Positions 9,241-42,225 of a stretch of 48,022 nucleotides of DNA are shown one piece after another. Each line of letters begins with the position of its first letter. Within the stretch, counting starts at the first letter, position 1. The notes below the pieces were generated by a model. That model had not been told where the DNA came from and did not search any database. It was given only the letters and a program-made list of their open reading frames with translations. Location: the NCBI GenBank assembly GCA_037442505.1, contig JBBIPZ010000010.1:32553-80574 (forward strand), in the 5' to 3' direction. Source of the stretch: JBBIPZ01 sp037442505 [NCBI: Deltaproteobacteria bacterium] (GTDB lineage: Bacteria; CALINM01). The position numbers and the translations under genes were made by a program.

Positions 9241-9300
9241 GTCTTTATAATAATTCAAGTTTACTCTTTTTAAAAGTCGCAAATATAGTATAATTTAAAA
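9241..9300. promoter_or_regulatory. Divergent, probably leaderless promoter region between recG and the TudS-like gene
   Basis: Plus strand: TATAAT at 9289-9294 ends six bases before the ATG at 9301, with no Shine-Dalgarno and no good -35. Minus strand: TATTAT (9247-9252) ends six bases before the recG ATG at 9240; a second -10-like TATACT lies further upstream near the alternative TTG. The -10 to ATG distance means transcription should begin at or next to the start codon on both sides. Confidence 0.5.
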
Positions 9301-10251
9301 ATGCAAAAGATACTTATAGGCATTAGCAGCTGTCTTTTGGGCGAAAAGGTTCGTTATAATGGTGAGCACAAAAAAGACCCCTATATAACCGAAACATTAA
9401 GCAATTTCTTTGAATGGTATCCAGTATGTCCTGAAGTAGGCTCGGGACTGTCTATACCAAGAGAACCAATGCGCCTTGAACAACAAAAAGATGTATCAAT
9501 TCGTCTTGTAACTATAAATACGAAAAGAGACTATACAGATTTACTGACTAATTTTTCTGAACAAAAAGCAAAATCGCTAACAAACGAAAATATTTGTGGT
9601 TTTATTTTTAAAGGAAGGTCTCCAAGTTCTGCAATATATGACGCAAAAATATACAACGAAAAGGGCGTTGTAATAAAAAAAGGGGCTGGTATTTTTGGGG
9701 CAACTTTTGTGAAAAATTTTCCATTAATCCCGGTTATAGATGATGGCAGGCTACACGATCCCAAACTCAGGGATAACTTTTTTGAAAAGGTGTTTTGTTA
9801 TAAAAGATGGTTAGAAACTTTAAACCTTGATAAAACAGTTAACGGATTAATTAAATTCCACACTAAGCATAAGTTGATATTAATGTCTCATAGTGTTAAA
9901 CATTACAATTTGCTTGGGAAAATGTTATCCAATACAAAAATTTACTCTAAAAACGAGCTTTTTAGTGAGTATGGAAAACATTTTATGGCTGCGTTGTCGT
10001 ATATTGCTACGACAAAGAAACATCTCAACGTGTTAATGCATTGTATGGGGTATTTTAAAAAGCTGCTTACTTCTGATGAAAAATCTGAACTATTAGAAAT
10101 TTTGGAACAGTTCAGGCTTGGCTATCTACCATTGATAGTTCCTGTTACGTTAATCAAACACTATACGAGAAAATATAAACAACCCTATCTCTCTGAACAA
10201 TACTTTTTAAACCCTTATCCTTTAGAACTTATGATAAGAAACCACCCTTGA
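9301..10251 (+). CDS. TudS-like (DUF523) protein fused to DUF1722
   Basis: The N-terminal half is a DUF523 domain: 'ISSCLLGEKVRYNGEHK', 'VCPEVGSGLSIPRE' and 'CGFIFKGRSPSSA', with cysteines 11, 43 and 99. In the DUF523 enzyme TudS, three such cysteines hold a [4Fe-4S] cluster used to desulfurate thiouracil. The C-terminal half, from about residue 180 ('LIKFHTKHKLILMSHS'), is DUF1722, a domain found alone or fused to DUF523. A role in sulfur removal from modified pyrimidines is known for TudS; for the fusion it is inference. It is cytoplasmic, with no signal peptide. No ribosome site precedes the ATG, which sits six bases after TATAAT. Confidence 0.85.
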   Translation: MQKILIGISSCLLGEKVRYNGEHKKDPYITETLSNFFEWYPVCPEVGSGLSIPREPMRLEQQKDVSIRLVTINTKRDYTDLLTNFSEQKAKSLTNENICGFIFKGRSPSSAIYDAKIYNEKGVVIKKGAGIFGATFVKNFPLIPVIDDGRLHDPKLRDNFFEKVFCYKRWLETLNLDKTVNGLIKFHTKHKLILMSHSVKHYNLLGKMLSNTKIYSKNELFSEYGKHFMAALSYIATTKKHLNVLMHCMGYFKKLLTSDEKSELLEILEQFRLGYLPLIVPVTLIKHYTRKYKQPYLSEQYFLNPYPLELMIRNHP

Positions 10252-10276
10252 GAAATGCTTATTAGTAAGCTAAAAT
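10248..10276 (+). promoter_or_regulatory. aspA promoter with an inverted repeat in the spacer
   Basis: TTGAGA (10248-10253) and TAAAAT (10271-10276) are separated by exactly 17 bases. The spacer contains a 14-base inverted repeat, GCTTA-TTAG-TAAGC (10257-10270), abutting the -10 box, placed like a repressor operator. The ATG (10285) lies eight bases after the -10 box and no Shine-Dalgarno is present, so the aspA message is probably leaderless. The -35 box overlaps the stop codon of the upstream gene. Confidence 0.6.
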
Positions 10277-10284
10277 TATAAATC

Positions 10285-11664
10285 ATGACAACATTCAGAA
10301 AAGAGACTGATTTTTTGGGAGAGGTTTTAATCCCCGCAAATGCTTATTACGGAATAAATTCTTTCCGTGCATCTCAAAACTTTCCAATATCTAATTTAAA
10401 AAATCATCAAGAGCTAACCAAAGCGATCGCTTTAATTAAAATATCAGCCTTTAAGCTTTTCAAAGATTATAAAATTTTTGATACAGATATTTGTGAAACC
10501 GTAATTCAAGCTGGAACAGAATTTTGCGATGGCTTATTCGACAATCATCTGATAGTAGATGTTTTTCAGGCGGGGGCAGGCACTTCTTTGCACATGAATA
10601 TTAACGAAATCATAGCCAATAGAGCTAACGAACTCTTAGGAAAACCTTTGGGAAGTTATAATCCTATCCATCCAAACGATACTATAAATTATGCACAATC
10701 AACTAATGATGTAATCCCAACAGCGATGAGAATATCTGTTATAAAACTTTCTGAAAATCTGTTTAAAGCTTTACACCAACTTTCTGGAACCTTTCTATCC
10801 AAAGGAGATGCCTTCAAAAATCTCATAAAATCCGGCAGGACGCATCTTTGCGACGCCACACCAATCACATTGGGGGATGAGTTTTATGCCTATGGCATCA
10901 CACTCAAGAAAGAGATTGAGCATATACAAAATACTTTGCTTTCGCTTCACGAGGTTGGAATATCAGGCACAGCAACGGGCTCAAGTATTAATGCGCCTGA
11001 AGTTTATAAGAAGCATATTATCGATTACCTTAAAAAGGAAACAGGAATTAATCTAAAACTTAACCCAAGTCTTTTCGAAGCGATGCAAAATCAGGGCGAC
11101 TTTTCTCATTTTATGGGCTCCTTAAAAGCTTTATCGCTGAACTTGACAAGAATTTCAAATGATATCAGACTTTTATCTTCAGGGCCCAATACAGGTTTTA
11201 ACGAGATTACCTTACCCAAAGTTCAGGCTGGCTCTTCTATTATGCCCGGCAAGGTTAATCCATCGATTCCAGAAATGTTAACCATGCTCTGTTTTTATGT
11301 ATGTGGGATGGAGGAAACAGTTGGGATGGCTGTACAGGCAGGGCAACTTGAACTAAACGTTATGATGCCAATTATAGCCCACGCTACCCTAACTTCTATT
11401 GAGTATCTTACAAATGCAATAAAAGTAATGAACGACAGATGCGTAAAAGGTATCCAAGCAAACGAAACTAAACTCAAAGAGTACGCATATAAAAGCTTAG
11501 GGTTAGCTACAGTGCTTAATCCTGTATTGGGTTACGAAAAGGTAGCAAAGTTAGTAAATCAGGCACGAGAACAAAACAAAACCATAATCCAGCTTATCAA
11601 AGAAAATAAGCTTTTAAATGAAAAAAAGTTGACGGCTCTAATCAAAAAATCTTTAAAAGGTTAG
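10285..11664 (+). CDS. aspA: Aspartate ammonia-lyase (aspartase)
   Basis: The enzyme deaminates L-aspartate to fumarate and ammonia. The 459 residues match the fumarase/aspartase superfamily from end to end: 'NINEIIANRANELLG', 'HPNDTINYAQSTNDVIPTA', 'GRTHLCDATPITLG' and the signature 'GSSIMPGKVNP' in the catalytic loop. Aspartase is favoured over class II fumarase by the 'FRKETDFLGE...IPANAYYGI' start and by 'GLFDNHLIVDVFQAGAGTS', but close family members are hard to separate by eye. It can feed fumarate to respiration or the TCA cycle. Its 3' end overlaps the convergent symporter gene by four bases. Confidence 0.88.
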   Translation: MTTFRKETDFLGEVLIPANAYYGINSFRASQNFPISNLKNHQELTKAIALIKISAFKLFKDYKIFDTDICETVIQAGTEFCDGLFDNHLIVDVFQAGAGTSLHMNINEIIANRANELLGKPLGSYNPIHPNDTINYAQSTNDVIPTAMRISVIKLSENLFKALHQLSGTFLSKGDAFKNLIKSGRTHLCDATPITLGDEFYAYGITLKKEIEHIQNTLLSLHEVGISGTATGSSINAPEVYKKHIIDYLKKETGINLKLNPSLFEAMQNQGDFSHFMGSLKALSLNLTRISNDIRLLSSGPNTGFNEITLPKVQAGSSIMPGKVNPSIPEMLTMLCFYVCGMEETVGMAVQAGQLELNVMMPIIAHATLTSIEYLTNAIKVMNDRCVKGIQANETKLKEYAYKSLGLATVLNPVLGYEKVAKLVNQAREQNKTIIQLIKENKLLNEKKLTALIKKSLKG

Positions 11665-13097
11665 TTTTTCTTAAGCCAGCTTGCCACAGGAACTACAATA
11701 AGTGGCAATAATATACCCATCACACCAACAAAGGGTATTTTTGACGGATTAAAATTGTAATAAAAAGAAAAAGATATAGTCACGGCAATGCCAGTTATAG
11801 TCCCAGCCAATGCTCCAAAAGCATTAACCTTTTTACTAAAAAGTCCATAAATATAAGGAGCGAGGAAGCTTCCTGATACAACGCCCCACGATAGCGCCAT
11901 TAAAGAGAGTATTATCGTAGGTTTTTTCATTGCAATAAAAACAGAAAACACAATAAATGCAAACGAAAGCAGTCTTAAAACAATCATCTGTCTATTATCG
12001 TTTTTAAAATAATCGAGATCCCCCAGTAGATCAACACAAACGGCTGAGCTTGAGACTAAAACAAGGGATGACAACGTTGACATAGATGCAGATAATACCA
12101 GTAATAGAATTAATGCAGCAACCCACGCAGGAATGTAGTTAGAAATCAACTGGGGTATAACCAGGTCTGGATTAGGTTTCATCAGCACTGGATCTACAGG
12201 AACGGTTTTAAAAAAAATAGGGGTCATTGCTCCTGCTAAGTAAGCACCACCAGCAATAATCAAAGCAAACATTGATGAGATATACATTGCAGGCTTAATT
12301 GAACTTTCATCTTTAATTGCATAAAATTTCTGTACCATTTGAGGCAAACCCCATGTCCCAAGACTCGTTAGTAGAGTCAAAAACAATATCGAGACAAAAC
12401 CTTTTCCACCCCATAACGAAACATAATCTTGATTAATTTCTTTGAGTTTAACTGTCAACCCAGTCACACCACCTACCATTGAGTTTGTCAACAAATAATA
12501 AAGCATTAAAAATACACCCATAATCATTATAAAACCCTGTATGAAGTCAGTTAAAGCAACCGCGTGGTATCCACCCATAATAAGATAAACAGTTGTTAAA
12601 CCAGCCATTAAAAATAAAGCATAAATATATGGCATCTTAAACACCGTTTCAAAAAAGTAACTCAATCCCATATAAACGGAAGCAGAGTACGGGACTAAAA
12701 ACACAAATATTATTATTGCAGCCAAATATTTGTACCGAGGGAAATTATATCTTGCTGCCAGAAATTCTGGCATAGTCCTTGCGTTATACATAGCTGTCAT
12801 TTTCCTTGTTCTTTTTGCAAGAACTTTCCATGCTAAATAGCTTCCAATTACCGCATTTCCAACTGCGATCCATAACGCAGACAGCCCAAAGTTAAAACCA
12901 ATTTTCCCAGCATAACCAATAAATAAAACTGCCGAAAAATATGTCGTGCCGTAAGCAAATGCTGAAAGCCAGGGGCCAACACTTCTATTACCTATTACAA
13001 AATCGTTTACAGTTTTCGTTTTAAAGAAACCAACAACACCTGCAAAAAGCATAATAATAGCAAATCCTAAACAAAACCATAACTTTGTCATTTCCAT
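11661..13097 (-). CDS. Sodium:solute symporter (SSS/PutP family)
   Basis: This is a 478-residue inner-membrane protein with about 13 transmembrane segments. The pattern 'VNDFVIGNRSVGPWLSAFAYGTTYFSAVLFIG', then 'ARTMPEFLAARYN' and 'LTDFIQGFIMIMGV', is characteristic of the SSS family, including the Na+-site region. The substrate cannot be read from sequence; proline, pantothenate and carboxylates are all transported by relatives. The start has an AAGGAT site. It is the last of a minus-strand run with the Crp/Fnr regulator and the isochorismatase-like hydrolase, which hints at regulated uptake of a small organic compound. Confidence 0.9.
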   Translation of the reverse strand: MEMTKLWFCLGFAIIMLFAGVVGFFKTKTVNDFVIGNRSVGPWLSAFAYGTTYFSAVLFIGYAGKIGFNFGLSALWIAVGNAVIGSYLAWKVLAKRTRKMTAMYNARTMPEFLAARYNFPRYKYLAAIIIFVFLVPYSASVYMGLSYFFETVFKMPYIYALFLMAGLTTVYLIMGGYHAVALTDFIQGFIMIMGVFLMLYYLLTNSMVGGVTGLTVKLKEINQDYVSLWGGKGFVSILFLTLLTSLGTWGLPQMVQKFYAIKDESSIKPAMYISSMFALIIAGGAYLAGAMTPIFFKTVPVDPVLMKPNPDLVIPQLISNYIPAWVAALILLLVLSASMSTLSSLVLVSSSAVCVDLLGDLDYFKNDNRQMIVLRLLSFAFIVFSVFIAMKKPTIILSLMALSWGVVSGSFLAPYIYGLFSKKVNAFGALAGTITGIAVTISFSFYYNFNPSKIPFVGVMGILLPLIVVPVASWLKKN

Positions 13098-13140
13098 AAC
13101 TATCCTTTCTTTCTACCTGAAGTTAGATGATATGAGTGTT

Positions 13141-13707: not shown

Positions 13708-13733
13708 AATGTTAACCTCCCTTAAATCTCTCT

Positions 13734-14369: not shown

Positions 14370-14406
14370 AAAATTAAACCTCCAAGCTTCTACCTTGATA
14401 TTTATA

Positions 14407-17108: not shown

Positions 17109-17116
17109 ATTGTTAT

Positions 17117-17145
17117 ATTTTAAACTAATAGCTGATCATTTTAAA
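17117..17145 (-). promoter_or_regulatory. Promoter of slt, probably leaderless
   Basis: On the minus strand TTTAAA (17140-17145), a 17-base spacer and TAAAAT (17117-17122) lie upstream of slt. Only eight bases separate the -10 box from the ATG at 17108, and no Shine-Dalgarno is present. Confidence 0.5.
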
Positions 17146-22614: not shown

Positions 22615-22684
22615 AGAGTATGTTATGATAACACATTTACAGTTTTTAATTGAAGTTTAAAGTTAGTGAGGGAAGCATTTTCAC

Positions 22685-22713
22685 TAAACAAAAACGTTTT
22701 TTTCTGTTATATT
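22685..22713 (+). promoter_or_regulatory. Extended -10 promoter of the radical SAM gene, probably leaderless
   Basis: TAAACA (22685-22690), 17 bases, then TATATT (22708-22713) preceded by TGT (extended -10). The ATG at 22722 is eight bases downstream and no Shine-Dalgarno is present. Confidence 0.5.
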
Positions 22714-28311: not shown

Positions 28312-29004
28312 TCAATCCTCTTTAAAAAATCTACACCATAGTAGCGTAACTAAAACAGTTATGCCGTGCACCCAACGTATCTTTTTACCTTCTGTGTATG
28401 TCCTGCCATAGTAGGAAATTGGAACTTCAACTATGCGAAAGCCTTTTTTAAGAAAAAACGCTGTTATTTCAGGATCAAACCCCCAACCATTTGATTTAAG
28501 TTTTAAATCATTAATACAATCACGTTTAAATACCTTGTAACAAGTCTCCATATCAGTTAGAGTAGTGTTAAACATTATGTTTGCTATCAGTGTCAAAAAT
28601 TTATTCCCCACTAAATGCCAGAAATAAAAAACCCTCGTTATACCTTTAAATCTTGAACCATAAACCACATCAGCCCTTTTTAAAGCAATAGGCTTAATCA
28701 GCTTTTCATACTCTGCAGGGTCATACTCTAAATCGGCATCTTGAATGATTATTACATCGCCAGTAACATGCTGAATGCCTGTCCTCACCGCTGCGCCTTT
28801 ACCCATATTTTTTTCGTGGAAGATTTTTTTTACGCTGGGATTTATATATGCTTCAAGCCACTGTCTTGAACCATCAGTTGAACAATCATCCACTATTATA
28901 ATCTCATCAACCCCCTGTTTCTGAACCTCGTTTACGATATCTTCAATAGAGTTAATCTCGTTATATAACGGTATGATTACCGCAACTTTTAATCCCAATA
29001 TCAT
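28312..29004 (-). CDS. Family 2 glycosyltransferase, polyprenyl-phosphate mannose synthase-like
   Basis: The 230-residue protein has the GT-A fold of the DPM1 group: 'AVIIPLYNEINSIEDIV', 'IIIVDDCSTDGS', the metal-binding 'IIQDADLEYDP' and 'VVYGSRF'. Such enzymes transfer a sugar from a nucleotide donor to a polyprenyl phosphate at the cytoplasmic face. It lacks a C-terminal membrane domain, except for one weakly hydrophobic helix near the end. The ATG overlaps the STT3 stop as ATGA, so the two are coupled. A dolichol-phosphate-like sugar could build the glycan that the STT3 protein transfers; this is inference from the coupling. Confidence 0.88.
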   Translation of the reverse strand: MILGLKVAVIIPLYNEINSIEDIVNEVQKQGVDEIIIVDDCSTDGSRQWLEAYINPSVKKIFHEKNMGKGAAVRTGIQHVTGDVIIIQDADLEYDPAEYEKLIKPIALKRADVVYGSRFKGITRVFYFWHLVGNKFLTLIANIMFNTTLTDMETCYKVFKRDCINDLKLKSNGWGFDPEITAFFLKKGFRIVEVPISYYGRTYTEGKKIRWVHGITVLVTLLWCRFFKED

Positions 29005-31634
29005 TTGTTATCCTGCACCGGTTTCTTATGAATATTGATATAAGTTGGTTTTGTTAGTCCAGCAATATTCTTAAGTACATCTCTTACATAATCTTCAAAA
29101 GGCTTTGACGCCTTTACAGCCTTTTTGAAATCAACATTTATCTGATTCCCATTTAAAACATCTTCGTTCTTCACAAGTAGCTCTACAACTTTACCATCAG
29201 AATACACTAAGTATGGTGATAAAGGCTTTACGAAAAAATTATCATCTGCGGTTGAATATGGTAACACACCACTAAAGTTGCCATTTTCATCAGCAATTGC
29301 GGCTGCATTCCAATCAAACTCTCTGTCAAAATTGGTTATAAAATGTGCCGTGAAAAATACTATCGAACGTGGTGTTGTTTTTCCGGAAATTTTTGCACCT
29401 TTAACATATTCAAACAGTTTATAACTCTTTAGTTCGATATCGTCAAAATATTGAATAAACGTTGGATTTTGAGACTCAAAAACTAATCTAAAATGCTTTA
29501 AGGCAGGTCCAAAAGTTGTAGAACTTCCATCAAAAACCCATAGACGTGGAAGCGGTAAAGTAAAGAAGTTTTCTTTGGGAGTCGGCACCTTTTCTCCAAA
29601 ATGTCCATCAAGAAAGTTTATATATTTGTCAAAAAAGCCAGGTTTGTAATATACAGAAGATCTTGGACTAATATAGTTAATCTGATCATTTAAAAAAAGA
29701 AATCTGACGTTGTATTTGCTAACAATATCAATCATTTCCTCTTCTGATTCACAGCTCCAGATATAAAGAGCAGTCTTAAAACCATCGCCTCTTAATTGAT
29801 GTCCAAAATTATTTACTATGGTTGGCCTTTCAGCTATATACTGGATATAATGTCCATGATCCCATGGTGCAAGTATCGCATATTCAGGTTTTTTATCTGG
29901 CTTCCAGAGATGACTTGTTTTTGGTGTATAGTTTTTTATCCATACAAGAGAATTGTATAAATCTGATTGTATAGGATAACCCTGTGTGTTTAGCATACTC
30001 TCTGCCATAAAAAAGTATGGTATCATAATAAACACAATGCAAAACAACGATAAAAAGAATGGGGATTTTTCCCAATAAACAATAAGTTTAGTCAGAAAAC
30101 CAACAGAAATCTTTTTCTTTTCACGCTTCCACTGGATAAACTCCCTAAAAAGTCCATGTCCTGTTTTAATTTTAATGTAAGCTGCATTAGCAAAAAGTGA
30201 TATACCTATAGCAAGAATTGGGCTGAATGCATTCCCCCACCTTTTCTGATAAAGAGCCATAAGTCCAATCATAACACCGGAAACGCCATAAAATAGAGTT
30301 AGTATTCTTGCTTTTTTTTCGCGCTTTATAAAACCATCAATACTCATCGGTTTTTGCAATCTATAAATCAGACTGGCAGGTTTGGTGATTTTTGTTTCTC
30401 CCAGAAAGATAAAATAAAGCTTATTTTCTTTCCATTTTAGATTTCTGTAAAGATAGATGAAACCAAAATACAAAGGAAACAAGAAGCTAATCAGATAGAT
30501 TAGATTAATAATACCTTCCTGTGTTTTTATTGTTGTAATAATCAGCTTAATACTAAACGTGTTTTGAAACTCGTTTATCGAAGAGTGCCAGGGATCCGAC
30601 TTTAACAAAAACCTCACTCCATCAAATACACCCTTTCTTAAAGGTGGTATCAATAATAAAATAAGTATTGCAATGCCAACTCCCAACGCAACCTTAATTA
30701 CATTCTTTTTGTTTTTTTGAACCATCTCGATAAAATAAACAAGAAGAAAAATCACAATATAAATAAATGTCACGTAAATAGGCTGAAAATATGAAAAAAA
30801 GCCAAAATCAAAGAGCGTTTGTTCCGTACTTCTGGGGATAATAAATCTAACAATAGCAGCTATGCCAGAACCTATTAAAGCAGCAGAAAGAAAAGACATA
30901 GATAGCTTCTTAATGAGTTCCAGATTTCTATGATTCATTATTATTACTAAGGCAAGATACATTCCCCATACTGTAAAAAAAACTACCTGTCCTTGCCAGA
31001 TAAGTATTCCTAAGGCAAAAAAGATACCGGTGTTAATAATATCTTTCCTTGCCAGTTGGTTCTCAAGAATATTGTTTATTTGCTTTAAACCAAAATAAAA
31101 GAACCAGAGAAACAAAAAAGTTTCTGCTACATGATGGTCACCTGAGCCAATAGTCGAATAACCTAACATACCCGGCATAATAATCGCAAAAAAGGCAGAA
31201 AAGATAGCAATACGTTCACTTTTCCATACCGTCTTTACAATTTTATAAACTGGGTAAATACATAATGCAGCAATAATGGGTGGAAGAAGTGCTGTAATTA
31301 GTTGAAGCACCTGAACGTTTGGTTTTCCACCACTGAAGATTAATGTCAAAACAGCCAGTGTAAAGTTGTAAAGAGGCGACCATGGACATTCTGCTCCAAA
31401 TGGGTAAGACATATAGTAATCCATAGTAATTAGCTTAGGAAAATTAGCCGCCCATATCATAGCCCTACGCATCTGATAATAGGCGTCTGGTTGAATGAAA
31501 ATAACATGCTTACCCCAATCCACAATTATGCTGTTCCAAGGTAGCAATCTTAAAACAAAAGCAGTTATTACAAATAAGCCCAAAATAAAATTGGTATTAT
31601 TGAGTTTCTTGATAAATTCTATCCACTTTTTCAT
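29001..31634 (-). CDS. STT3-family oligosaccharyltransferase-like protein
   Basis: The protein has about 877 residues, with roughly a dozen transmembrane helices in the N-terminal 500 and a soluble C-terminal domain, as in AglB/PglB. Family marks are an acidic luminal motif 'IQPDAYYQMRR', 'TIGSGDHHVAETFLFLW' (the DHH...E loop), and the acceptor-binding signature 'APWDHGHYIQY'. The last reads W-D-H-G in place of the usual W-W-D-Y-G. Family members transfer glycans from a lipid carrier to asparagine in exported proteins. The start is unsure: ATG 31634, an in-frame TTG six bases upstream with better Shine-Dalgarno spacing, or ATG 31661 without a site. Enzyme activity is unproven because the signature is altered. 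Confidence 0.85.
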   Translation of the reverse strand: MKKWIEFIKKLNNTNFILGLFVITAFVLRLLPWNSIIVDWGKHVIFIQPDAYYQMRRAMIWAANFPKLITMDYYMSYPFGAECPWSPLYNFTLAVLTLIFSGGKPNVQVLQLITALLPPIIAALCIYPVYKIVKTVWKSERIAIFSAFFAIIMPGMLGYSTIGSGDHHVAETFLFLWFFYFGLKQINNILENQLARKDIINTGIFFALGILIWQGQVVFFTVWGMYLALVIIMNHRNLELIKKLSMSFLSAALIGSGIAAIVRFIIPRSTEQTLFDFGFFSYFQPIYVTFIYIVIFLLVYFIEMVQKNKKNVIKVALGVGIAILILLLIPPLRKGVFDGVRFLLKSDPWHSSINEFQNTFSIKLIITTIKTQEGIINLIYLISFLFPLYFGFIYLYRNLKWKENKLYFIFLGETKITKPASLIYRLQKPMSIDGFIKREKKARILTLFYGVSGVMIGLMALYQKRWGNAFSPILAIGISLFANAAYIKIKTGHGLFREFIQWKREKKKISVGFLTKLIVYWEKSPFFLSLFCIVFIMIPYFFMAESMLNTQGYPIQSDLYNSLVWIKNYTPKTSHLWKPDKKPEYAILAPWDHGHYIQYIAERPTIVNNFGHQLRGDGFKTALYIWSCESEEEMIDIVSKYNVRFLFLNDQINYISPRSSVYYKPGFFDKYINFLDGHFGEKVPTPKENFFTLPLPRLWVFDGSSTTFGPALKHFRLVFESQNPTFIQYFDDIELKSYKLFEYVKGAKISGKTTPRSIVFFTAHFITNFDREFDWNAAAIADENGNFSGVLPYSTADDNFFVKPLSPYLVYSDGKVVELLVKNEDVLNGNQINVDFKKAVKASKPFEDYVRDVLKNIAGLTKPTYINIHKKPVQDNK

Positions 31635-31736
31635 AAGCAAAAGTTTTCCCTCTCTCAACATTTAAGACAAAATTTCAACGTTCCATTAAATTATTTTATA
31701 GAATTCGCAAGAAAAATTCATTAAAAATAAGGAGAG

Positions 31737-32091: not shown

Positions 32092-32112
32092 TTTGAAAAA
32101 GGTCTCATTTCA
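32092..32112 (+). repeat. Dispersed short repeat, copy A
   Basis: tttgaaaaaggtctcatttc occurs here and, with one mismatch over 21 bases, at 42240-42260; a more diverged copy is at 39914-39934. In this copy the repeat supplies the -35 box of the promoter for the lipoprotein gene at 32129. Confidence 0.55.
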
Positions 32113-32121
32113 TGCTAAAAT
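32093..32121 (+). promoter_or_regulatory. Promoter of the small lipoprotein gene, probably leaderless
   Basis: TTGAAA (32093-32098), 17 bases, TAAAAT (32116-32121). The ATG at 32129 follows after seven bases without any Shine-Dalgarno. An in-frame TTG at 32093 is not a credible start, since it is inside the promoter. Confidence 0.6.
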
Positions 32122-33119: not shown

Positions 33120-34232
33120 TTATCTTTCAATCTCTCCTCTGGTGAACTTTTCTACTCTCTCGCGCGCCTCTTCGTCAGAATATTGTTTGATAGGATGCTT
33201 CATAAAGTAGGCTGAAGCAGATTTTAACACGCCACCAATTTTCCTATCAATTGCTATTTTTGCACAACGGATAGCATCAATAACAACACCTGCACTATTG
33301 GGCGAATCCTCCACAGAAAGCTTCAGCTCTAAATCAATAGGCACACCACCAAATGCCCTACCAGTGATTTTTAAATAACAAATTTTGTTGTCGTTTAAAA
33401 AAGGCACAAAATCTGATGGCCCTATATGGATATTGCTCCATTGTAATGGTTGTGATAGCTGTGACTGAACAGCCTCTGTCTTAGATATCTTTTTCGATTT
33501 CAATCTGCTACGATTTAACATATTTAAAAAATCTGTATTACCACCAAAATTAAGTTGATACGTTGATGTAATCTTTACTCCTCTATCTTCAAACAACTTT
33601 GTTAAAACCCTGTGAACAATAGTCGCCCCAACCTGACTTTTAATATCATCACCTACGATAGGGATATTTTTATCTTCAAACCGTTTAGCCCATGTTTCAT
33701 CTGAAGCTATAAAAACAGGCATACAGTTTATAAAAGCTACCTTTGCCTTCAAACATTCTTCAGCATAAAACCTGACCGCACGTTCAGAACCAACAGGCAG
33801 ATAACAGACTAAAATCTCTGTTCCTGTCTCTTTCAACACCCTGGCAACATTAACTGGCTTCGCATCAGAAGGAATAAAACGCATATCATCTGGATAATCT
33901 GACATATGTTCAGCAACGCCGTCGAGAATGTGCCCCATTGAAACTTTTATTTTAAAGTCTGGCAGTTTATCATAAAATAATTTGGCACAGTTAGGCTTTG
34001 CGAGTAAAGCTTCTTTTAAATCTTTTCCCACTTTTCTTACATCAATATCAAAGGCAGATACCACCTCTATGTCCTGCGGCTCATATCCACCTAAATTATA
34101 ATGCATCAAGCCAATTGATGAGTCGGGATGGTTACTACCAAGGCTTTTATAATATTCAATACCCTGGATTAGTGCACTTGCGCAGTTGCCCACCCCTAAT
34201 ATACCTATTTTAATCGCATTTCTTTTCCCCAT
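33120..34232 (-). CDS. ino1: myo-Inositol-1-phosphate synthase
   Basis: The enzyme isomerises glucose-6-phosphate to L-myo-inositol-1-phosphate using NAD. The 370 residues are of the short bacterial/archaeal type. Visible features are the N-terminal Rossmann motif '[16 protein letters not shown]', '[16 protein letters not shown]', '[17 protein letters not shown]' with '[11 protein letters not shown]', and '[18 protein letters not shown]', which are MIPS core and catalytic blocks. It sits divergently from uvrB, with GGTGG before the ATG. Bacterial Ino1 is uncommon outside Actinobacteria and thermophiles, so it says something about the lineage or lifestyle. Confidence 0.92.
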
Positions 34233-34293
34233 GGGTTATCACCACCGGATTATAATTATTTACGTTATAATAAGTTACAAAAAAAAAGTTGTA

Positions 34294-34322
34294 TTGTCAA
34301 TTTTTTTGCCAGGCATTAAAAT
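34294..34322 (+). promoter_or_regulatory. uvrB promoter, leaderless with GTG start
   Basis: TTGTCA (34294-34299), 17 bases, TAAAAT (34317-34322); the GTG start of uvrB at 34330 follows after seven bases, with no Shine-Dalgarno. The ino1 start lies on the other strand of the same 97-base intergenic region, where TATAAT-like boxes (34250-34270) serve the divergent gene. Confidence 0.6.
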
Positions 34323-34329
34323 AAACAAT

Positions 34330-36318
34330 GTGGAAAATTTTAAAATTGTCACCGACTTTGCCCCGAGTGGGGATCAACCGCATGCTATAAAAAAGCTTAC
34401 TGAGGGCTTAAAAAAAGGTCTCAAACACCAGGTACTCTTAGGTGTAACAGGTTCTGGAAAAACATTCACAATGGCAAATGTTATAGCCAATGTAAACAAA
34501 CCAACTCTTATCATTGCACCTAATAAAACACTTGCAGCCCAACTATACTTTGAGTTCAAAGAACTTTTTCCCGAAAATGCCGTTGAATACTTTGTTAGCT
34601 ATTACGACTATTATCAACCTGAAGCTTATATCCCGGAAACAGATACCTATATCGAGAAAGACTCCTCGATCAACGAAGAAATTGACAAACTACGACATCG
34701 TGCAACGTATTCGCTGCTTGAGAGAAACGATGTTATTATAGTAGCTTCTGTTTCATGTATATATGGCATAGGTTCACCTGAGGCATACCATGGCTTACTG
34801 GTCTTTCTCCAAAAATGCAACGAGGCAGATATAAGACAGGTTATGAGCAAATTGATACAGATTCAATATATCAGAAATGATTACGATTTTTACCGTGGCA
34901 CATTCAGGGTGAGAGGTGATGCTTTAGAAATTTTTCCTGCTTATGAAGATAGCAAGGCTATAAGGGTAGAATTTTTTGGCGATACAGTGGAGAACATTTA
35001 TACATTTGACCCGCTGACAGGAGAGGTGAAAGAGAGCCTGCCCAAAATAGCGATTTATCCAGCAAGCCATTATGTAGCTACAGAAGACAAGATGAAAGAG
35101 GCTATAAAGAACATACGTAACGAACTGAAAGAACGGTTAGACTTTTTGCATCAAAACAATAAACTTTTAGAAGGACAGCGTTTGAAGCAAAGAACATTAT
35201 ACGATATAGAGATACTCGAAGAAGTGGGTTATTGTAAAGGAATTGAGAACTATTCTCGCTATTTGGATGGCAGGCCTGCTGGCGCACCACCTTTTACTTT
35301 ATTAGATTATTTTCCAAAAGATTTTTTGTTGATAATAGACGAATCACATCTAACTATTCCCCAGCTTAATGGGATGTACGCAGGAGACAAATCTCGTAAA
35401 ACAACACTTGTCGAGCATGGTTTTAGACTGCCATCAGCCCTTGACAACCGCCCATTAACTTTTAGCGAATTTGAAGCACGAATTAATCAAGTTGTTTACA
35501 TATCTGCAACGCCGGGTCCTTACGAACTTGTCAAAAAGGAGCAACTGGTAGAACAGCTGATAAGACCCACAGGACTGGTAGATCCAGAAATTATTGTAAA
35601 ACCAGCAAAAAATCAGATTGAAGATATGCTAAACGAAATTAAAGCTGCAATAGAAAAAAATGAGCGTGTTTTAGTTACAACCTTGACCAAACGAATGGCG
35701 GAAGACCTTTCAACATTTCTGCAAGATAAAGGTATAAAGACAAAATACCTGCATTCCGATATAGACACAATAGAAAGGGTTAAAATTATAAAATCACTAC
35801 GAAAAGGTGATTTTGACGTCCTGATAGGCATCAATCTTTTAAGAGAAGGTCTTGATATGCCTGAAGTTGCTCTGGTTGTTATTTTAGACGCAGATAAAGA
35901 AGGCTTCTTAAGATCAGAAACATCACTTATACAGACCTGCGGGAGAGCAGCTCGAAACGTAAATGGGCGAGTCATTTTTTACGCAGATACTGTTACAAAA
36001 TCAATGTCTAACGCAATAAATGAAGCAATGCGAAGGAGGAAAAAACAGCTTGCGTATAACGAAGAACATGGTATTACACCAGAAACGATAAAAAAAGCGA
36101 TTAAAGAAGACTTTGGCATTTTATGCGAAAAAGATTATTACACCGTATCGATAGAAGAGAATAAAGAATCATATAGCATTGACGATGCTATAATAGAAAA
36201 GCAAATCAAAAAATTAGAAAAAGAGATGAAAAAAATGGCAAAAAATCTACAGTTTGAACGGGCAGCCAGGATACGTGACGAGATAAAGTTGCTTAAAGAA
36301 AGACTTGTAACTGTCTGA
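34330..36318 (+). CDS. uvrB: Excinuclease ABC subunit B
   Basis: UvrB verifies DNA damage and loads UvrC in nucleotide excision repair. From GTG 34330 the protein has 662 residues and starts '[20 protein letters not shown]', as UvrB proteins do. It has Walker A 'GVTGSGKT', the damage-probing hairpin '[20 protein letters not shown]', DEAD-like 'IIDESH', helicase motifs '[10 protein letters not shown]' and 'QTCGRAARN', and a C-terminal UVR domain ('[17 protein letters not shown]'). The upstream in-frame ATG at 34186 lies in the ino1 gene and is not used. Confidence 0.96.
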
Positions 36319-38125: not shown

Positions 38126-38129
38126 CTTT

Positions 38130-38993
38130 ATGAAAGACTACCCAGAATATAACACTTATCAAACACCTACATGGTGCCCGGGTTGCGGCAACTTTGGCAT
38201 CTGGTACGCATTAAAAAATGCGTTTCATCAACTAAATCTAAAAAACAACGAAATAACAATGGTTTTCGGAATTGGTTGTTCAGGAAATCTATCAAACTTT
38301 CTTAAAGTTTATGGTTTCCACAGCATACACGGACGCACACTTCCTGTTGCTTCTGGTATTAAACTTGCAAATCATTCACTCAACGTGATTGCAACATCCG
38401 GTGATGGTGACGGATTGGGTATCGGGTTGGGACATTTTATTCACTCATGCAGACGAAACATTGACCTCACTTATCTCATTCACGATAACAGAATCTACGG
38501 GTTAACTACAGGACAGACTTCTCCTACCAGTCCAAAAGATTTCAAAACAAAATCAACACCATTCGGGGTGATTGAGCTTCCAGTTAATCCTCTTGCACTT
38601 GCTATTCTTTCTGGTGCAACATACGTTGCAAGAGGGTATTCAGGCGAAATAGACCATCTCGCAAATCTTATAGCTAACGGAATAAAGCACAAAGGTTTTG
38701 CAGTTATAGATGTATTACAACCTTGCGTTTCTTTCAACCCGCAATATTCTTACCCCTTTTACAATCCTCGTGTTTACAAATTAGAAGATTCTGGACATGA
38801 CACTTCTGATTTTGAAAAAGCCTTAAATTTGGCTATCAATACAAATGAAAGGATACCAATCGGTCTCTTTTACAAAACAGAAAGACAAACTTACGAAGAT
38901 GCGTCTCTGGAGTTAGGCGATATACCTCTTTTTAACGACAACATTGATAATGTTGATATAACGCCAATTTTAAAAAATATACTTAACAGGTAA
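38130..38993 (+). CDS. korB: 2-oxoacid:ferredoxin oxidoreductase, TPP-binding beta subunit
   Basis: From ATG 38130 (CAGGAG site; the reading can be extended to 38064 but overlaps korA) the protein has 287 residues. It shows 'TWCPGCGNFGIW', 'VFGIGCSGN', the TPP/Mg motif 'TSGDGDGLGIGLGHFIH' (GDGD) and 'NRIYGLTTGQTSPTS'. It has no separate ferredoxin domain; Fe-S binding would use the conserved N-terminal cysteines. It is coupled to korA, and the nadA ATG follows its stop by seven bases. Confidence 0.92.
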   Translation: MKDYPEYNTYQTPTWCPGCGNFGIWYALKNAFHQLNLKNNEITMVFGIGCSGNLSNFLKVYGFHSIHGRTLPVASGIKLANHSLNVIATSGDGDGLGIGLGHFIHSCRRNIDLTYLIHDNRIYGLTTGQTSPTSPKDFKTKSTPFGVIELPVNPLALAILSGATYVARGYSGEIDHLANLIANGIKHKGFAVIDVLQPCVSFNPQYSYPFYNPRVYKLEDSGHDTSDFEKALNLAINTNERIPIGLFYKTERQTYEDASLELGDIPLFNDNIDNVDITPILKNILNR

Positions 38994-39000
38994 ACAAAAT

Positions 39001-39909
39001 ATGACTCAAGATTTAATATCAGAAATCAGAAAAATAGCAAAAGAAAAGAATGCGGTTATCCTTGCTCACAATTACCAGCGACCTGAAGTGCAGGATGCTG
39101 CTGATTTTGTTGGAGATTCATTAGAGCTAAGCATCAAAGCAAGAGATACTGAAGCCGATATTATTATTTTCTGCGGTGTTCATTTTATGGCAGAGACAGC
39201 AAAAATTCTTTCTCCACAAAAAAAAGTTGTTATGCCAAGAATAGATGCGGGATGTCCGATGGCTGATATGGTGACTGCAGATGCTCTTGCAGCGGAGAAA
39301 TTGAAGTATCCGAAACACAAAGTAGTTACATACGTTAACTCTTCCGCTGCAGTAAAAGCGATAAGTGATGCCTGTTGTACATCTTCTAATGCAGTAAATG
39401 TTGTGAAAAACATTGAATCAGATAAAATACTTTTTGTCCCAGATAAAAATCTTGGCAATTTTGTGTCACGTTTTGTAAAAAAAGAGATTGTTTGTTGGAA
39501 AGGTTTTTGTCCCACCCACGAAAAATTGAAGGTAGAAGATATTATACAAAAGAAAAGCGAGTATCCTGAAGCCAAAGTGCTTGTTCATCCTGAATGCAGA
39601 CCAGAGGTTATCGATATTGCTGACAGGGCACTTAGTACATCTGGAATAATAAAGTTTTGCAAAGAAGATGACTCAAAAATATTCATTATAGGCACAGAAG
39701 AGGGCATCTTACACAGGCTAAAAAAGGAAAATCCTGATAAAAATTTCGTTTTGGCATCAGAAAAACTTGTCTGCCCCAATATGAAACTTACCAGTATTGA
39801 AGACCTACATCAGGAGATAATTGAACTTAAAAACGAGGTCTTTGTCGCTGAAGATGTGATAGTTAATGCTAAAAAGTCACTTGAAAGAATGTATCAATTA
39901 GCCACTTGA
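39001..39909 (+). CDS. nadA: Quinolinate synthase
   Basis: NadA condenses iminoaspartate with dihydroxyacetone phosphate to quinolinate, using a [4Fe-4S] cluster. The 302-residue protein has 'LAHNYQRPEVQDAADFVGDS', 'FCGVHFMAETAK', 'VHPECRPEVIDIAD' and three cluster cysteines at 85 ('AGCPMADM'), 170 ('KGFCPTHE') and 258 ('LVCPNM'), the spacing of the short NadA type. It is downstream of korAB on the plus strand; its partner nadB lies convergent 0.7 kb away, so the NAD pathway genes are clustered but not in one operon. NadC is not visible. Confidence 0.95.
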   Translation: MTQDLISEIRKIAKEKNAVILAHNYQRPEVQDAADFVGDSLELSIKARDTEADIIIFCGVHFMAETAKILSPQKKVVMPRIDAGCPMADMVTADALAAEKLKYPKHKVVTYVNSSAAVKAISDACCTSSNAVNVVKNIESDKILFVPDKNLGNFVSRFVKKEIVCWKGFCPTHEKLKVEDIIQKKSEYPEAKVLVHPECRPEVIDIADRALSTSGIIKFCKEDDSKIFIIGTEEGILHRLKKENPDKNFVLASEKLVCPNMKLTSIEDLHQEIIELKNEVFVAEDVIVNAKKSLERMYQLAT

Positions 39910-39934
39910 CACCTTTGAAAAAGGTCCCTATTAA
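39906..39934 (+). promoter_or_regulatory. Sigma-70-like element at the nadA stop, directly before a terminator
   Basis: TTGACA (39906-39911) and TATTAA (39929-39934) with a 17-base spacer form a near-consensus promoter. It lies across the nadA stop codon and dispersed repeat copy C, and would initiate near 39941, inside the terminator stem. It may be accidental, or serve a very short RNA. Confidence 0.3.
39914..39934 (+). repeat. Dispersed short repeat, copy C (diverged)
   Basis: About 17 of 21 bases match copy A, and the flank TGACACCTTTGAAAAAG matches that of copy B (16 of 17 from 39908 against 42234). It includes the palindromic ACCTTT-GAA-AAAGGT, a possible small hairpin. Confidence 0.45.
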
Positions 39935-39938
39935 TAAA

Positions 39939-39963
39939 AAAAGCGGACATTTAGTCCGCTTTT
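39939..39963. terminator. Bidirectional intrinsic terminator between nadA and the nadB operon
   Basis: AAAAGCGGAC-ATTTA-GTCCGCTTTT forms a ten-base-pair stem with A/T arms on both sides, so it can end transcripts in either direction: from korAB-nadA on the plus strand, and from nadB-chorismate mutase on the minus strand. Confidence 0.85.
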
Positions 39964-39979
39964 AACTCTTTCAAAATAA

Positions 39980-39995
39980 GACCCCACCAGGGGTC
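39980..39995 (-). terminator. GC hairpin ending the minus-strand operon
   Basis: On the minus strand GACCCC-TGGT-GGGGTC is a six-base-pair stem with a four-base loop, followed by TTATTTT. It overlaps the stop codon of the 19-codon ORF and precedes the stronger AAAAGCGGAC terminator by about 20 bases. Confidence 0.5.
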
Positions 39996-40053
39996 AGCAC
40001 CCCTCTTTACAATGTGTGACCGGTCTCAACATATACCATGCCCTTGCTACCAT
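39994..40053 (-). CDS. Possible 19-residue leader-like or remnant ORF with perfect ribosome site
   Basis: The reading MVARAWYMLRPVTHCKEGC starts at ATG 40053. It is preceded by AAGGAGGTGA, an exact complement of the usual 16S rRNA tail, at good spacing. That same site contains the TGA stop of the preceding gene. No homologue is recognised and such a short ORF could be chance, but the ribosome site is the strongest in the window. The TGA stop falls on a hairpin, and beyond it 23 further codons are open; I see no reason to call this a selenocysteine readthrough. Confidence 0.4.
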   Translation of the reverse strand: MVARAWYMLRPVTHCKEGC

Positions 40054-40057
40054 AAAA

Positions 40058-40282
40058 TCACCTCCTTTTTTTCTTTTTAAAATCAGTGATTTTAACTACT
40101 TGCTGAACACCTTTCATATTTTCAAGTTCCGTCGAATCAAAACCCTTCACATCACCTATTACACCTATTATAACATGTTTTAGTCCTGTTGAAGTGTGAA
40201 AATCAAAATTATTTTTTATCAAGTAATCCTTTACCCTCTCTATATCTTTTTCTAAGGCATTTTCTTCAAATATAACGAGCAT
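40058..40282 (-). CDS. Stand-alone DAHP synthase N-terminal ferredoxin-like (FL) regulatory domain
   Basis: The 74-residue protein (MLVIFEENALEKDIERVKDY..., 'LKHVIIGVIGDVKGFD', 'VQQVVKITDFKKKKRR') resembles the first about 70 residues of the type I-beta DAHP synthase of Thermotoga, the FL domain that gives tyrosine feedback. The (beta/alpha)8 catalytic barrel that should follow is missing: the ORF ends in a clean stop at the linker, and the next 150 bases hold terminators and then nadA on the other strand. It sits two bases after chorismate mutase. It may be a truncated remnant, or a split regulatory subunit acting on a DAHP synthase encoded elsewhere. Identification rests on recall of the family and is moderate. 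Confidence 0.65.
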   Translation of the reverse strand: MLVIFEENALEKDIERVKDYLIKNNFDFHTSTGLKHVIIGVIGDVKGFDSTELENMKGVQQVVKITDFKKKKRR

Positions 40283-40283
40283 C

Positions 40284-40571
40284 TTAATCCTCCTCCCTGG
40301 CTTTTAGCCTTTCTAATCGCCTTGCCTCATCAATAATTCTTTCAAAAAGCCTGATTACGGCATTGCTATCAAGAGGACCGTTATTTTCTGATATTAGTCT
40401 ATTTATGATTTGTTTCTCTCGTTCAGGGTCATAAACAGCAAGATTATAAGTTTTTTTCAAAACGCCAATCTTAAGTGCAAGTGATGATCTTACATTAAGT
40501 AACTTTAGAAGGCTGCTGTCAATCGCATCAATAAGCTCTCTTATATCATAAATTTCTTTTGGCATCTTCAT
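40284..40571 (-). CDS. Chorismate mutase (AroQ type)
   Basis: The 95-residue all-helical protein converts chorismate to prephenate for phenylalanine and tyrosine. It keeps the AroQ pattern 'IRELIDAIDSSLLKLLNVRS' with 'LALKIGVLKK', the active-site 'DPEREKQIINRL' and 'LFERIIDEARRLE'. It is free-standing, not fused to prephenate dehydratase. It overlaps the nadB stop as ATGA and is followed by the DAHP synthase FL domain, a link to aromatic amino acid control. Confidence 0.9.
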   Translation of the reverse strand: MKMPKEIYDIRELIDAIDSSLLKLLNVRSSLALKIGVLKKTYNLAVYDPEREKQIINRLISENNGPLDSNAVIRLFERIIDEARRLERLKAREED

Positions 40572-42190
40572 AGATAACCACCTGGTTTCCTGAATAAAAC
40601 TGTATCTTTAGCCCACATAACATCATCTTTTTCAGGATAATCTAAATTGTAGTGAAGACCTCGAGACTCCTTTCTTAACAGTGCTGAGGTTATTATCAGA
40701 TCGGCAACAGTAGCGATATTTCTCAACTCAATCAGTGGCGCAATTAATTTAAAGTTGTGGTAATACTCTCTTATCTCATCTTTTAAAAGGTCTATACGGC
40801 GTTTTGCCCTTTCTAAACGCTTATCTGTTCTGACAATCCCAACATAATTCCACATAAAGCGTTTAATTTCATCCCAATTATGCTTTATCACAATCATCTC
40901 CTCAGGATCTATAGTTCCATAGTACTTCCATGCTAAAATTTCAGAAGTACTGGGACGTTCTGTTGATGGTAGCTTTAAAACACTGTCTTTAAAGGCATTA
41001 TGAGCAAAAACAACAGCTTCTAATAGCGAATTACTTGCAAGTCTATTTGCTCCGTGTAGTCCAGTAGCAGCAACCTCTCCTATAGCATACAAATTAGAGA
41101 TAAAGGTTTCTCCATTTTTATCCGTCATTACTCCACCACACATATAATGTGCAGAAGGCACAACTGGTATAAACTCCTTTGTAATGTCAATTCCCATTGA
41201 AAGACAATGCTGGTAAATTTGTGGAAAACGCCTAATTATAAAGTCAGGGGTTAAGTGTGTAATATCGAGATATACATGCTTTAATCCCAATCTCTTCATC
41301 TCTGCATCTATAGCCCTTGCAACAATATCACGCGGAGCGAGATCTTTCATCGGATGATACTTCTCCATAAATGGTGTTCCGTCCGGAAGTCTTAAAATCC
41401 CACCTTCTCCTCTAACAGCCTCCGAAATCAAAAACGATGTTTCACCGTTAGGTTGGTATAAAGCAGTTGGATGAAACTGGAAAAACTCCATGTTCATTAT
41501 TTTGGCTCCAGCACGATAAGCCATCGCAACACCATCGCCAGTGGCAATTGAAGGGTTTGTTGTATGTAGGTAAACTTGCCCGCCACCACCTGTTGCAAGT
41601 ATTGTGAATTTTGAGACAAAGGTTTTAACTTCTGAGGTCTCTTCATCAAGAATATAAGCCCCTAAACATCTATCCTTATTCAAGGCTGTTTTTTTCACCC
41701 TGGATTCTATCAGTAGATCAATAGCAATATGGTTTTCTAACACTTTTATGTTAGGAATATTTTTGATCTGTTCTAAAAGTGCCTTCTCAATTTCTCGCCC
41801 TGTAAAATCACCTGCGTGGAGAATTCTTCGTGCAGAATGTCCGCCCTCTTTGCCAAGATCAAAATATGTATCATCGTCCTGTGGCGCTGGTGTAAATTTA
41901 GTTCCCAACTCAATCAGGTCTTTAACTCTCTCAGGTCCTTCTTTAACAACCATTTCTACTACATCATAGTGACAGATACCAGCACCAGCATTTAAAGTAT
42001 CTTTGATGTGCGATTCAAACGAGTCGCTTTTGTTCAAAACACATGCTATGCCACCCTGTGCATAGTTTGTATTTGACTCACTGCGCTCCTTTTTCGTAAT
42101 GATATAAACTTCTCCGTACTTAGAGGCTTTTATAGAGAAAAAAAGACCTGCAATACCACTACCAATAACAAGAAAATCAGTAACAATCAT
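40568..42190 (-). CDS. nadB: L-aspartate oxidase
   Basis: NadB oxidises aspartate to iminoaspartate with FAD, using O2 or fumarate; it works with NadA. The 540 residues open with the FAD motif 'LVIGSGIAGLFFSIKAS', then 'ESNTNYAQGGIACVL', 'GGGGQVYLHTTNPSIATGDG', 'DIVARAID', 'YMCGGVMTDKNGET' and 'GLHGANRLASNSLLEAVVF', and a helical succinate-dehydrogenase-like C-terminus. In an anaerobe fumarate is the likely acceptor. The ATG has no Shine-Dalgarno and lies six bases after TAAAAT, so it is probably leaderless. It leads the operon with chorismate mutase and the FL domain. Confidence 0.95.
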   Translation of the reverse strand: MIVTDFLVIGSGIAGLFFSIKASKYGEVYIITKKERSESNTNYAQGGIACVLNKSDSFESHIKDTLNAGAGICHYDVVEMVVKEGPERVKDLIELGTKFTPAPQDDDTYFDLGKEGGHSARRILHAGDFTGREIEKALLEQIKNIPNIKVLENHIAIDLLIESRVKKTALNKDRCLGAYILDEETSEVKTFVSKFTILATGGGGQVYLHTTNPSIATGDGVAMAYRAGAKIMNMEFFQFHPTALYQPNGETSFLISEAVRGEGGILRLPDGTPFMEKYHPMKDLAPRDIVARAIDAEMKRLGLKHVYLDITHLTPDFIIRRFPQIYQHCLSMGIDITKEFIPVVPSAHYMCGGVMTDKNGETFISNLYAIGEVAATGLHGANRLASNSLLEAVVFAHNAFKDSVLKLPSTERPSTSEILAWKYYGTIDPEEMIVIKHNWDEIKRFMWNYVGIVRTDKRLERAKRRIDLLKDEIREYYHNFKLIAPLIELRNIATVADLIITSALLRKESRGLHYNLDYPEKDDVMWAKDTVLFRKPGGYL

Positions 42191-42196
42191 ATTTAA

Positions 42197-42225
42197 ATTT
42201 TAACAGTTTAAAGACGTCAAAGCAA
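42197..42225 (-). promoter_or_regulatory. nadB promoter, probably leaderless
   Basis: On the minus strand TTGCTT (42220-42225), a 17-base spacer, and TAAAAT (42197-42202) with the extended TGT in front. Only six bases lie between the -10 box and the ATG at 42190. Confidence 0.55.

What the first reader, a model, noticed from the sequence alone, without database searches (positions are those of the whole stretch)
9241..42225. Recurrent leaderless transcription starts at transcription-unit-leading genes
At eight leading genes the -10 hexamer ends only 6-8 bases before the start codon and there is no Shine-Dalgarno: recG (TATTAT), the TudS-like gene (TATAAT), aspA (TTGAGA-17-TAAAAT), slt, the radical SAM gene (extended -10), the 32129 lipoprotein (TTGAAA-17-TAAAAT), uvrB (TTGTCA-17-TAAAAT, GTG start) and nadB. 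Internal operon genes nearly all have clear Shine-Dalgarno sites. The uniform spacing suggests this lineage uses leaderless mRNAs widely, with promoter strength and start choice tied together. Leaderless mRNAs are well known in archaea, Actinobacteria and Deinococcus, less so elsewhere.
Basis: partly seen in the sequence, partly recalled or inferred. Interest (0 to 1): 0.62.

Follow-up and report, generated by a model that had tools for sequence, protein, structure and literature searches.

The report
Promoters abutting start codons: leaderless genes
In this uncultured bacterial lineage many first-in-operon genes carry their promoter directly against the start codon and lack a ribosome-binding site, so their messages probably begin at the start codon itself; this looks real, but it is a known way of expressing genes that many other bacteria also use.

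Summary
AT-rich chance does not explain them. With starts called blind to the motif, SD-less leading genes show a -10 peak at 6-8 bases in the window (5 vs 0.2 expected) and in three related genomes: G001 28 vs 4.8, G002 8 vs 0.9, G003 8 vs 1.8. Over all leading genes of window, G001 and G002, other A/T-only hexamers there are at expectation (162 vs 165) while -10-like ones are 39 vs 8.4. A -35 peak lies at 28-32 bases in G001 (13 vs 3.6) and G003 (11 vs 1.6). Low-GC Firmicutes show no such -10 (0 vs 8.5); Deinococcus deserti does. uvrB and aspA keep the layout in all four genomes, nadB in three, with differing letters. Best reading: sigma-70-type promoters placed so that transcription starts at the start codon, giving leaderless mRNAs. 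No 5' ends were mapped. Leaderless genes are documented in many bacterial groups, so this is a new lineage with a known trait.

The parts
9247..9252 (-). -10 box TATTAT, 6 bases before recG ATG (9240)
   Evidence: located; the G001 orthologue has no strict box at 5-9 bases
9289..9294 (+). -10 box TATAAT, 6 bases before the TudS-like gene's ATG (9301)
   Evidence: in-frame TAG at 9286-9288 and no start codon between it and 9301, read
10271..10276 (+). -10 box TAAAAT, 8 bases before aspA ATG (10285)
   Evidence: orthologues in G001, G002 and G003 have TATATT, TATATT and TATAAT 6 bases before an ATG (read by eye)
10248..10253 (+). -35 box TTGAGA of aspA, spacer 17
17117..17122 (-). -10 box TAAAAT, 8 bases before slt-like (lytic transglycosylase) ATG (17108)
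   Evidence: family match below the curated cut-offs
22708..22713 (+). -10 box TATATT (TG upstream), 8 bases before radical SAM gene ATG (22722)
   Evidence: family match below the curated cut-offs
32116..32121 (+). -10 box TAAAAT, 7 bases before ATG 32129 of the small lipoprotein-like gene
32093..32098 (+). -35 box TTGAAA of the 32129 gene, spacer 17
34317..34322 (+). -10 box TAAAAT, 7 bases before uvrB GTG (34330)
   Evidence: start agrees within 2 codons with the relatives, which have boxes 6-8 bases before ATG in G001, G002 and G003
34294..34299 (+). -35 box TTGTCA of uvrB, spacer 17
42197..42202 (-). -10 box TAAAAT, 6 bases before nadB ATG (42190)
   Evidence: orthologues in G001 and G002 have TATAAT 9 bases before ATG, start position identical
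22625..22630 (-). Borderline: TATCAT 10 bases before smc ATG (22614), no SD; not counted

Best explanation
A share of the first genes of transcription units in this lineage is expressed from sigma-70-type promoters (-35 TTGAc/a, about 17 bases, -10 TATAAT) that sit at a fixed distance from the start codon, the -10 ending 6-8 bases before it. RNA polymerase normally begins 6-8 bases after the -10 (recalled), so the mRNA begins at or within about two bases of the start codon and is leaderless. Such an mRNA must be started by the leaderless route (5'-terminal AUG/GUG, probably bound by 70S ribosomes), and the promoter position therefore fixes which start codon is used. Genes inside operons, and other leading genes, use Shine-Dalgarno sites. 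Shown: the fixed position of -10 signals and, in G001 and G003, of -35 signals; their concentration at leading SD-less genes; conservation at a few genes. Inferred: the transcript 5' ends and the mode of ribosome binding.
For: -10 peak at 6-8 bases with motif-blind starts in SD-less leading genes of window, G001, G002 and G003; pooled over all their leading genes, a box at 5-9 bases in 59 of 403 vs 22.4 expected, p = 1.5e-11. TATAAT is the most enriched non-SD hexamer at 6-8, 18 vs 2.05; other A/T-only hexamers 162 vs 165.1. Reverse-complement ATTNTA 11 vs 9.8, TANAAT 35 vs 11.2. Still seen where an in-frame stop forbids an earlier start: 35 vs 10.6 in 150 genes. Motif-model log-likelihood ratio 100 vs shuffled mean 30.2, maximum 42.7 of 100 shuffles. 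-35 peak at 28-32 in SD-less leading genes: G001 13 vs 3.6, G003 11 vs 1.6; none in SD-bearing leading genes, 2 vs 2.9 (window, G001, G002) and 2 vs 2.2 (G003). Extended TG at 10 of 50 boxes at 5-9 bases vs 14 of 212 at 25-89. Conservation at uvrB, aspA and nadB and in an orthologue table: both boxed 5 pairs, one 3, neither 28, p = 1.5e-4, pairs not independent. A plasmid of D. deserti, whose genus uses leaderless mRNAs, gives the same peak, 19 vs 3.5.
Against: No RNA data. The window's own genome is not held, so genome-scale counts are from relatives at 73-76% UvrB identity. G003 is weak on all leading genes (10 vs 6.1, p = 0.09; internal genes 14 vs 8.8) and clear only after SD genes are removed. 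The -35 peak is not seen in the window (0 vs 0.2, 9 genes) or G002 (1 vs 0.4, 23 genes). Leading genes with a -35 at 28-32 are not significantly richer in strict -10 boxes (5 of 16 vs 44 of 246, p = 0.16), and internal genes also show some -35 excess there (29 vs 16.5). recG's box is not kept in strict form in G001, and neither of the two G001 genes with a box and a G003 partner keeps it in G003. The scarcity of SD sites among boxed genes (1 of 35 in G001) is partly mechanical, since the box occupies the SD place.
Confidence: 0.87

Rival explanations
1. Chance: in a 32-36% GC genome TATAAT-like words are common before start codons and the reader picked starts that fit.
For: Promoter-like sites in the window are not above shuffles; two of the eight starts lie downstream of the blind call or, for the 32129 gene, upstream of it.
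Against: Position-specific excess with blind starts, absent for other A/T-only hexamers and for ATTNTA, and absent in low-GC Firmicutes (0 vs 8.5) and in the equally AT-rich G013 (4 vs 3.6); uvrB's start is supported by homologues.
Confidence: 0.03
2. The A/T-rich element near the start is a translational feature (unstructured or S1-binding non-SD leader) and transcripts start further upstream.
For: Nakagawa 2017 offers leaderless mRNA or S1 binding as alternative causes of AT bias near -10 (passages); an S1 protein with six S1 matches in one frame is present in G001.
Against: The signal is word-specific and not general AT richness, is accompanied in G001 and G003 by a -35 box 28-32 bases upstream that contains G, and is near background at internal genes (13 vs 9.7).
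Confidence: 0.06
3. The boxes are -10 elements of secondary promoters; most protein is made from longer leadered transcripts that start further up or read through from the neighbour.
For: aspA and nadB follow a same-strand gene by 33 and 114 bases; nothing here measures transcript amounts.
Against: Six of the eight, all but aspA and nadB, are divergent from their upstream neighbour, and SD-less genes would still need an initiation route.
Confidence: 0.12

Closest known systems
TA-led (leaderless) genes of bacteria, Zheng et al. 2011 (PMC3160421; passages and section 7 read)
   Same: TANNNT/TATAAT about 10-12 bases upstream of the start, taken as leaderless genes; low-GC genomes have the full TATAAT and in some a TG before it, as here.
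   Different: That survey covers complete genomes of 2010; this lineage is not named in what I read. The share here (about 3-10% of genes) is below the ~20% of Actinobacteria and ~40% of Deinococcus-Thermus given there.
-10 region adjacent to ORFs in Deinococcus-Thermus (PMC12340547; passages read)
   Same: -10 motif typically about 6-7 bases before the ORF, transcribed as leaderless mRNA; the same peak was found here on D. deserti plasmid 1.
   Different: There a TANNNT core; here AT-rich with TATAAT and, in G001 and G003, a -35 at fixed distance, which the D. deserti plasmid did not show (1 vs 1.0).
Leaderless class of GeneMarkS-2 (Lomsadze 2018, not read; as cited in PMC9581028, passages read)
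   Same: Mixed genomes with leaderless and SD genes; 21.6% of bacterial species so predicted.
   Different: I could not run GeneMarkS-2; only an in-house finder was used.

Membership tests
Bacterial leaderless genes | -10 box ending about 6-8 bases before the start codon, beyond chance | tested here: met
Bacterial leaderless genes | no Shine-Dalgarno site at the same genes | tested here: met
   0 of 8 in the window; SD in 1 of 35 (G001), 0 of 9 (G002), 1 of 10 (G003), 0 of 5 (window) boxed leading genes vs 81 of 184, 6 of 20, 59 of 131, 5 of 9 of the others; partly mechanical
Bacterial leaderless genes | concentrated at monocistronic or operon-leading genes | tested here: met
   -10-like A/T-only hexamers at 6-8 bases in window, G001 and G002: leading 39 vs 8.4, internal 13 vs 9.7; G003 alone does not show the contrast at 5-9 bases (10 vs 6.1 and 14 vs 8.8)
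Bacterial leaderless genes | transcript 5' end at or within a few bases of the start codon | not testable with these tools
   no RNA data
Bacterial leaderless genes | mostly AUG or GUG start (recalled criterion) | tested here: met
   window 7 ATG, 1 GTG; boxed leading genes G001 32 ATG, 3 GTG of 35; G002 8 ATG, 1 TTG of 9; G003 10 ATG of 10
sigma-70 promoter | -35 box at 16-18 bases from the -10 | tested here: inconclusive
   position peak at 28-32 bases in G001 and G003, but -35 quality at boxes only modestly raised over far boxes: 21 of 50 vs 23 of 109, p = 0.008, and as high at internal boxes, 11 of 24; no gene-by-gene link (p = 0.16)

The most novel reading that the evidence does not exclude
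A deep, uncultured clade (window, G001-G003; alone on a long UvrB branch) in which the promoter, not the ribosome-binding site, sets the start codon at a third or more of transcription units, held at the same DNA-repair and metabolic genes (uvrB, aspA, nadB) through deep divergence, so that leaderless initiation is a main and conserved route and not a scattered remnant.
Probability: 0.3. Interest if true: 0.45.

Novelty: new member of a known kind. Interest (0 to 1): 0.3.

Why it matters
It adds an AT-rich, uncultured lineage to those that use leaderless mRNAs and shows how to detect this in AT-rich genomes, where -10 boxes are easily dismissed as composition. In practice it warns that start calls in this clade should be checked against the promoter: for uvrB my codon-score caller chose an ATG 99 bases upstream of the GTG that homologues and the promoter favour.

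Tried and rejected
An EM fit on the window alone is uninformative (14 genes; fraction 1.00, positions scattered). EM fractions are high even on shuffled sequence (mean 0.68), so the 0.56 for SD-less leading genes is only an upper figure; I rely on the likelihood and the position. A strict -10 pattern is nearly blind in GC-rich sets (D. deserti 1 hit), so TAnnnT was used there. TAnnnT on all leading genes is diluted in AT-rich sets (G001 69 vs 53.2; G003 30 vs 28.8).

Signals elsewhere: G023 (46.6% GC, best UvrB match outside the clade) has no strict -10 peak (1 vs 0.5) but TAnnnT 9 vs 2.6 and -35 6 vs 0.5, so it may share the trait. The mixed gamma/beta set shows TAnnnT 9 vs 2.9 without a -35 (1 vs 0.9). 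The named delta set has -35 3 vs 0.6 and TAnnnT 3 vs 1.8. G013 is borderline (TAnnnT 5 vs 2.1; -35 3 vs 0.8). G024 and G015 show no excess of TAnnnT (0 vs 1.2; 1 vs 0.9). All; none was followed up, and no correction was made for the 17 groups tested there.

The anti-SD 15-mer was found in G003, G013 and G023 but not in G001 or G002; whether the 16S end is missing from those assemblies or differs was not tested.

Literature searches: 22 of 23 papers listed; 15 of 47; 12 of 43. The search for leaderless with metagenome-assembled, promoter, uncultured and start codon and for SKW176 returned nothing; leaderless with Deltaproteobacteria and transcription start sites gave one enterobacterial paper (listing only). 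That does not show that the lineage has not been covered.

Rows dropped: genes at stretch ends, without a neighbour, with under 120 bases upstream, or with N (window: 38 of 40 called genes kept); pairs under 35% identity or with starts more than 8 residues apart; three of 110 loci that gave no usable start. Locus L119 (761 bases) was fetched but not analysed. The low-GC Firmicutes set (13 loci, 39.2% GC, so less AT-rich than the clade) and the other named sets were picked by me from the 80 loci.
Full report
What was checked. The window (48,022 bases, 35.0% GC) was read for genes with the ORF list and an in-house finder that uses codon scores and is blind to promoter motifs. They are 8 of 15 leading genes by my count; 5 others carry a Shine-Dalgarno site and 2 neither.

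Where it comes from. The window's genome is not held. A scan with its UvrB gave one close relative, a record titled 'Proteobacteria bacterium isolate SKW176' (L001, 76% identity, in G001), and then 65% or less among the 80 best kept. In a quick UvrB tree window and G001-G003 form one clade with support 100 on a branch of 0.34, with no other named close kin. The phylum was not settled.

Chance. I took 868 kb of G001, 113 kb of G002 and 554 kb of G003, called genes blind to the motif, and called a gene leading if its upstream neighbour is on the other strand or more than 60 bases away. For TANAAT, TATTAT or TATATT ending 5-9 bases before the start, leading genes gave G001 36 vs 13.7 expected from positions 20-79, G002 9 vs 2.3, G003 10 vs 6.1, window 5 vs 0.7; internal genes gave 21 vs 17.3, 2 vs 2.4, 14 vs 8.8 and 1 vs 0.4. 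Low-GC Firmicutes (39.2% GC) gave 0 vs 8.5, a second Firmicutes set 2 vs 4.2, a Pseudomonas-rich set 1 vs 1.2, and G013 (34.8% GC) 4 vs 3.6. By gene, pooled over window and G001-G003, 59 of 403 against 22.4, p = 1.5e-11; G003 alone p = 0.09. Taking only SD-less leading genes and distance 6-8: G001 28 vs 4.8, G002 8 vs 0.9, G003 8 vs 1.8, window 5 vs 0.2.

Not composition. In 262 leading genes of G001, G002 and the window, -10-like A/T-only hexamers at 6-8 bases were 39 against 8.4 while all other A/T-only hexamers were 162 against 165.1; among the top hexamers, otherwise mostly SD words, TATAAT was the first that is not one, 18 against 2.05. ATTNTA, the reverse complement, was 11 vs 9.8 and TANAAT 35 vs 11.2 at 5-9 bases; a looser reverse-complement set was 29 vs 15.2, but it holds ATAATA, which overlaps TATAAT in a shifted register. 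A motif model fitted to the 169 SD-less leading genes had log-likelihood ratio 100, against a mean of 30.2 and a maximum of 42.7 in 100 dinucleotide shuffles.

Not start miscalling. Where an in-frame stop within 36 bases and no earlier start codon forbid a start further up, 35 boxes at 5-9 bases were seen in 150 genes against 10.6. Giving every distance the same freedom to choose among ATGs of the first 24 codons leaves the peak at 6-8 (14, 16, 11 against 0-7 at the other distances from 0 to 39).

The -35. Fitted 20 bases further upstream, the same model, started from TATAAT, moved to TTGAAA (log-likelihood ratio 59 against 20.8-29.9 at three other shifts). Counting TTGA-type boxes, SD-less leading genes have an excess at 28-32 bases: G001 13 vs 3.6 (p = 9e-5), G003 11 vs 1.6 (p = 1e-6); G002 (1 vs 0.4) and the window (0 vs 0.2) are too small to tell; SD-bearing leading genes have none (2 vs 2.9 in window, G001 and G002; 2 vs 2.2 in G003). 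That is where a -35 belongs if the -10 ends at 6-8. Against this, the two boxes are not significantly linked gene by gene (p = 0.16), and internal genes show a mild excess too (29 vs 16.5).

Conservation. uvrB: TAAAAT-7-GTG in the window, TATAAT-7-ATG in G001, TATAAT-8-ATG in G002, TAAAAT-6-ATG in G003. Among 107 usable uvrB loci, an SD-less TAnnnT box at 6-8 occurs in 11, four of which are the G001 (held twice), G002 and G003 loci. nadB: 6 bases in the window, 9 in G001 and G002. aspA: 8 in the window, 6 in G001, G002 and G003, read by eye. recG: no strict box in G001. Orthologues of the TudS-like gene and slt were not found in the stretches held, and the radical SAM gene had only a 25.5% match. 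In reciprocal-best leading pairs, both have a box in 5, one in 3, neither in 28 (Fisher p = 1.5e-4; pairs share genes and are not independent); the three failures are recG in G001 and both boxed G001 genes that have a G003 partner.

Yardstick. D. deserti plasmid 1, from a genus with leaderless transcription (D. radiodurans, passages of PMC12340547), gave TAnnnT 19 vs 3.5 at 5-9 bases.

How it works. From general knowledge of sigma-70 promoters (recalled), transcription begins about 6-8 bases after the -10, so these mRNAs should begin at or next to the start codon. They would be translated by the leaderless route, while SD sites serve most operon-internal genes and other leading genes (SD 4-mers at 0.60-0.67 of internal genes, background 0.21-0.33; leading 0.21-0.43, background 0-0.28, in window and G001-G003). 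Transcript ends and ribosome route are inferred.

How much. In the G001 stretches, 219 of 765 genes lead: the strict excess (28 minus 4.8) is 11% of leading genes, the TAnnnT excess (54 minus 19.2) 16%, and the EM share of 0.56 of 137 SD-less genes 35%, the last an upper figure. This is about 3-10% of all genes there. In the window it is 8 of 15 leading genes.

Known or new. Zheng 2011 found leaderless genes in 207 of 953 bacterial genomes over many phyla, including delta-proteobacteria, with TATAAT as the low-GC form (section 7 read). The StartLink paper cites 21.6% of bacterial species with leaderless transcription (passages). PMC12340547 gives about 6-7 bases as the typical distance in D. 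radiodurans (passages). So the finding is right and well supported, but it is a known kind in a new lineage. On rechecking, the confidence was lowered from 0.88 to 0.87 because both boxed G001 genes with a G003 partner lack the box in G003.

Noticed in passing
window 29001-31661 (-): Protein resembles the archaeosortase-associated oligosaccharyl transferase STT3 subfamily (TIGR04154, E 4.6e-97, below its cut-off), which I would not expect in a bacterium.
   Followed up: no
window 34186-36318 (+): The codon-score start of uvrB (34231) lies 99 bases upstream of the GTG at 34330 and touches the start of the divergent gene at 33120-34232; homologues and the promoter favour the GTG.
   Followed up: yes
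window 9241-9300: recG and the TudS-like gene are divergent with 60 bases between them, so both promoters overlap face to face; possible co-regulation.
   Followed up: no
L208-L217 (G023): In this 46.6% GC genome SD-less leading genes have a -35 excess at 28-32 bases (6 vs 0.5) and TAnnnT at 6-8 (9 vs 2.6), hinting at leaderless genes there as well.
   Followed up: partly
L106 (G004), uvrB upstream: uvrB of a distant genome shows TTGACT, about 17 bases, TATATT, 7 bases, ATG: another leaderless-like uvrB.
   Followed up: no
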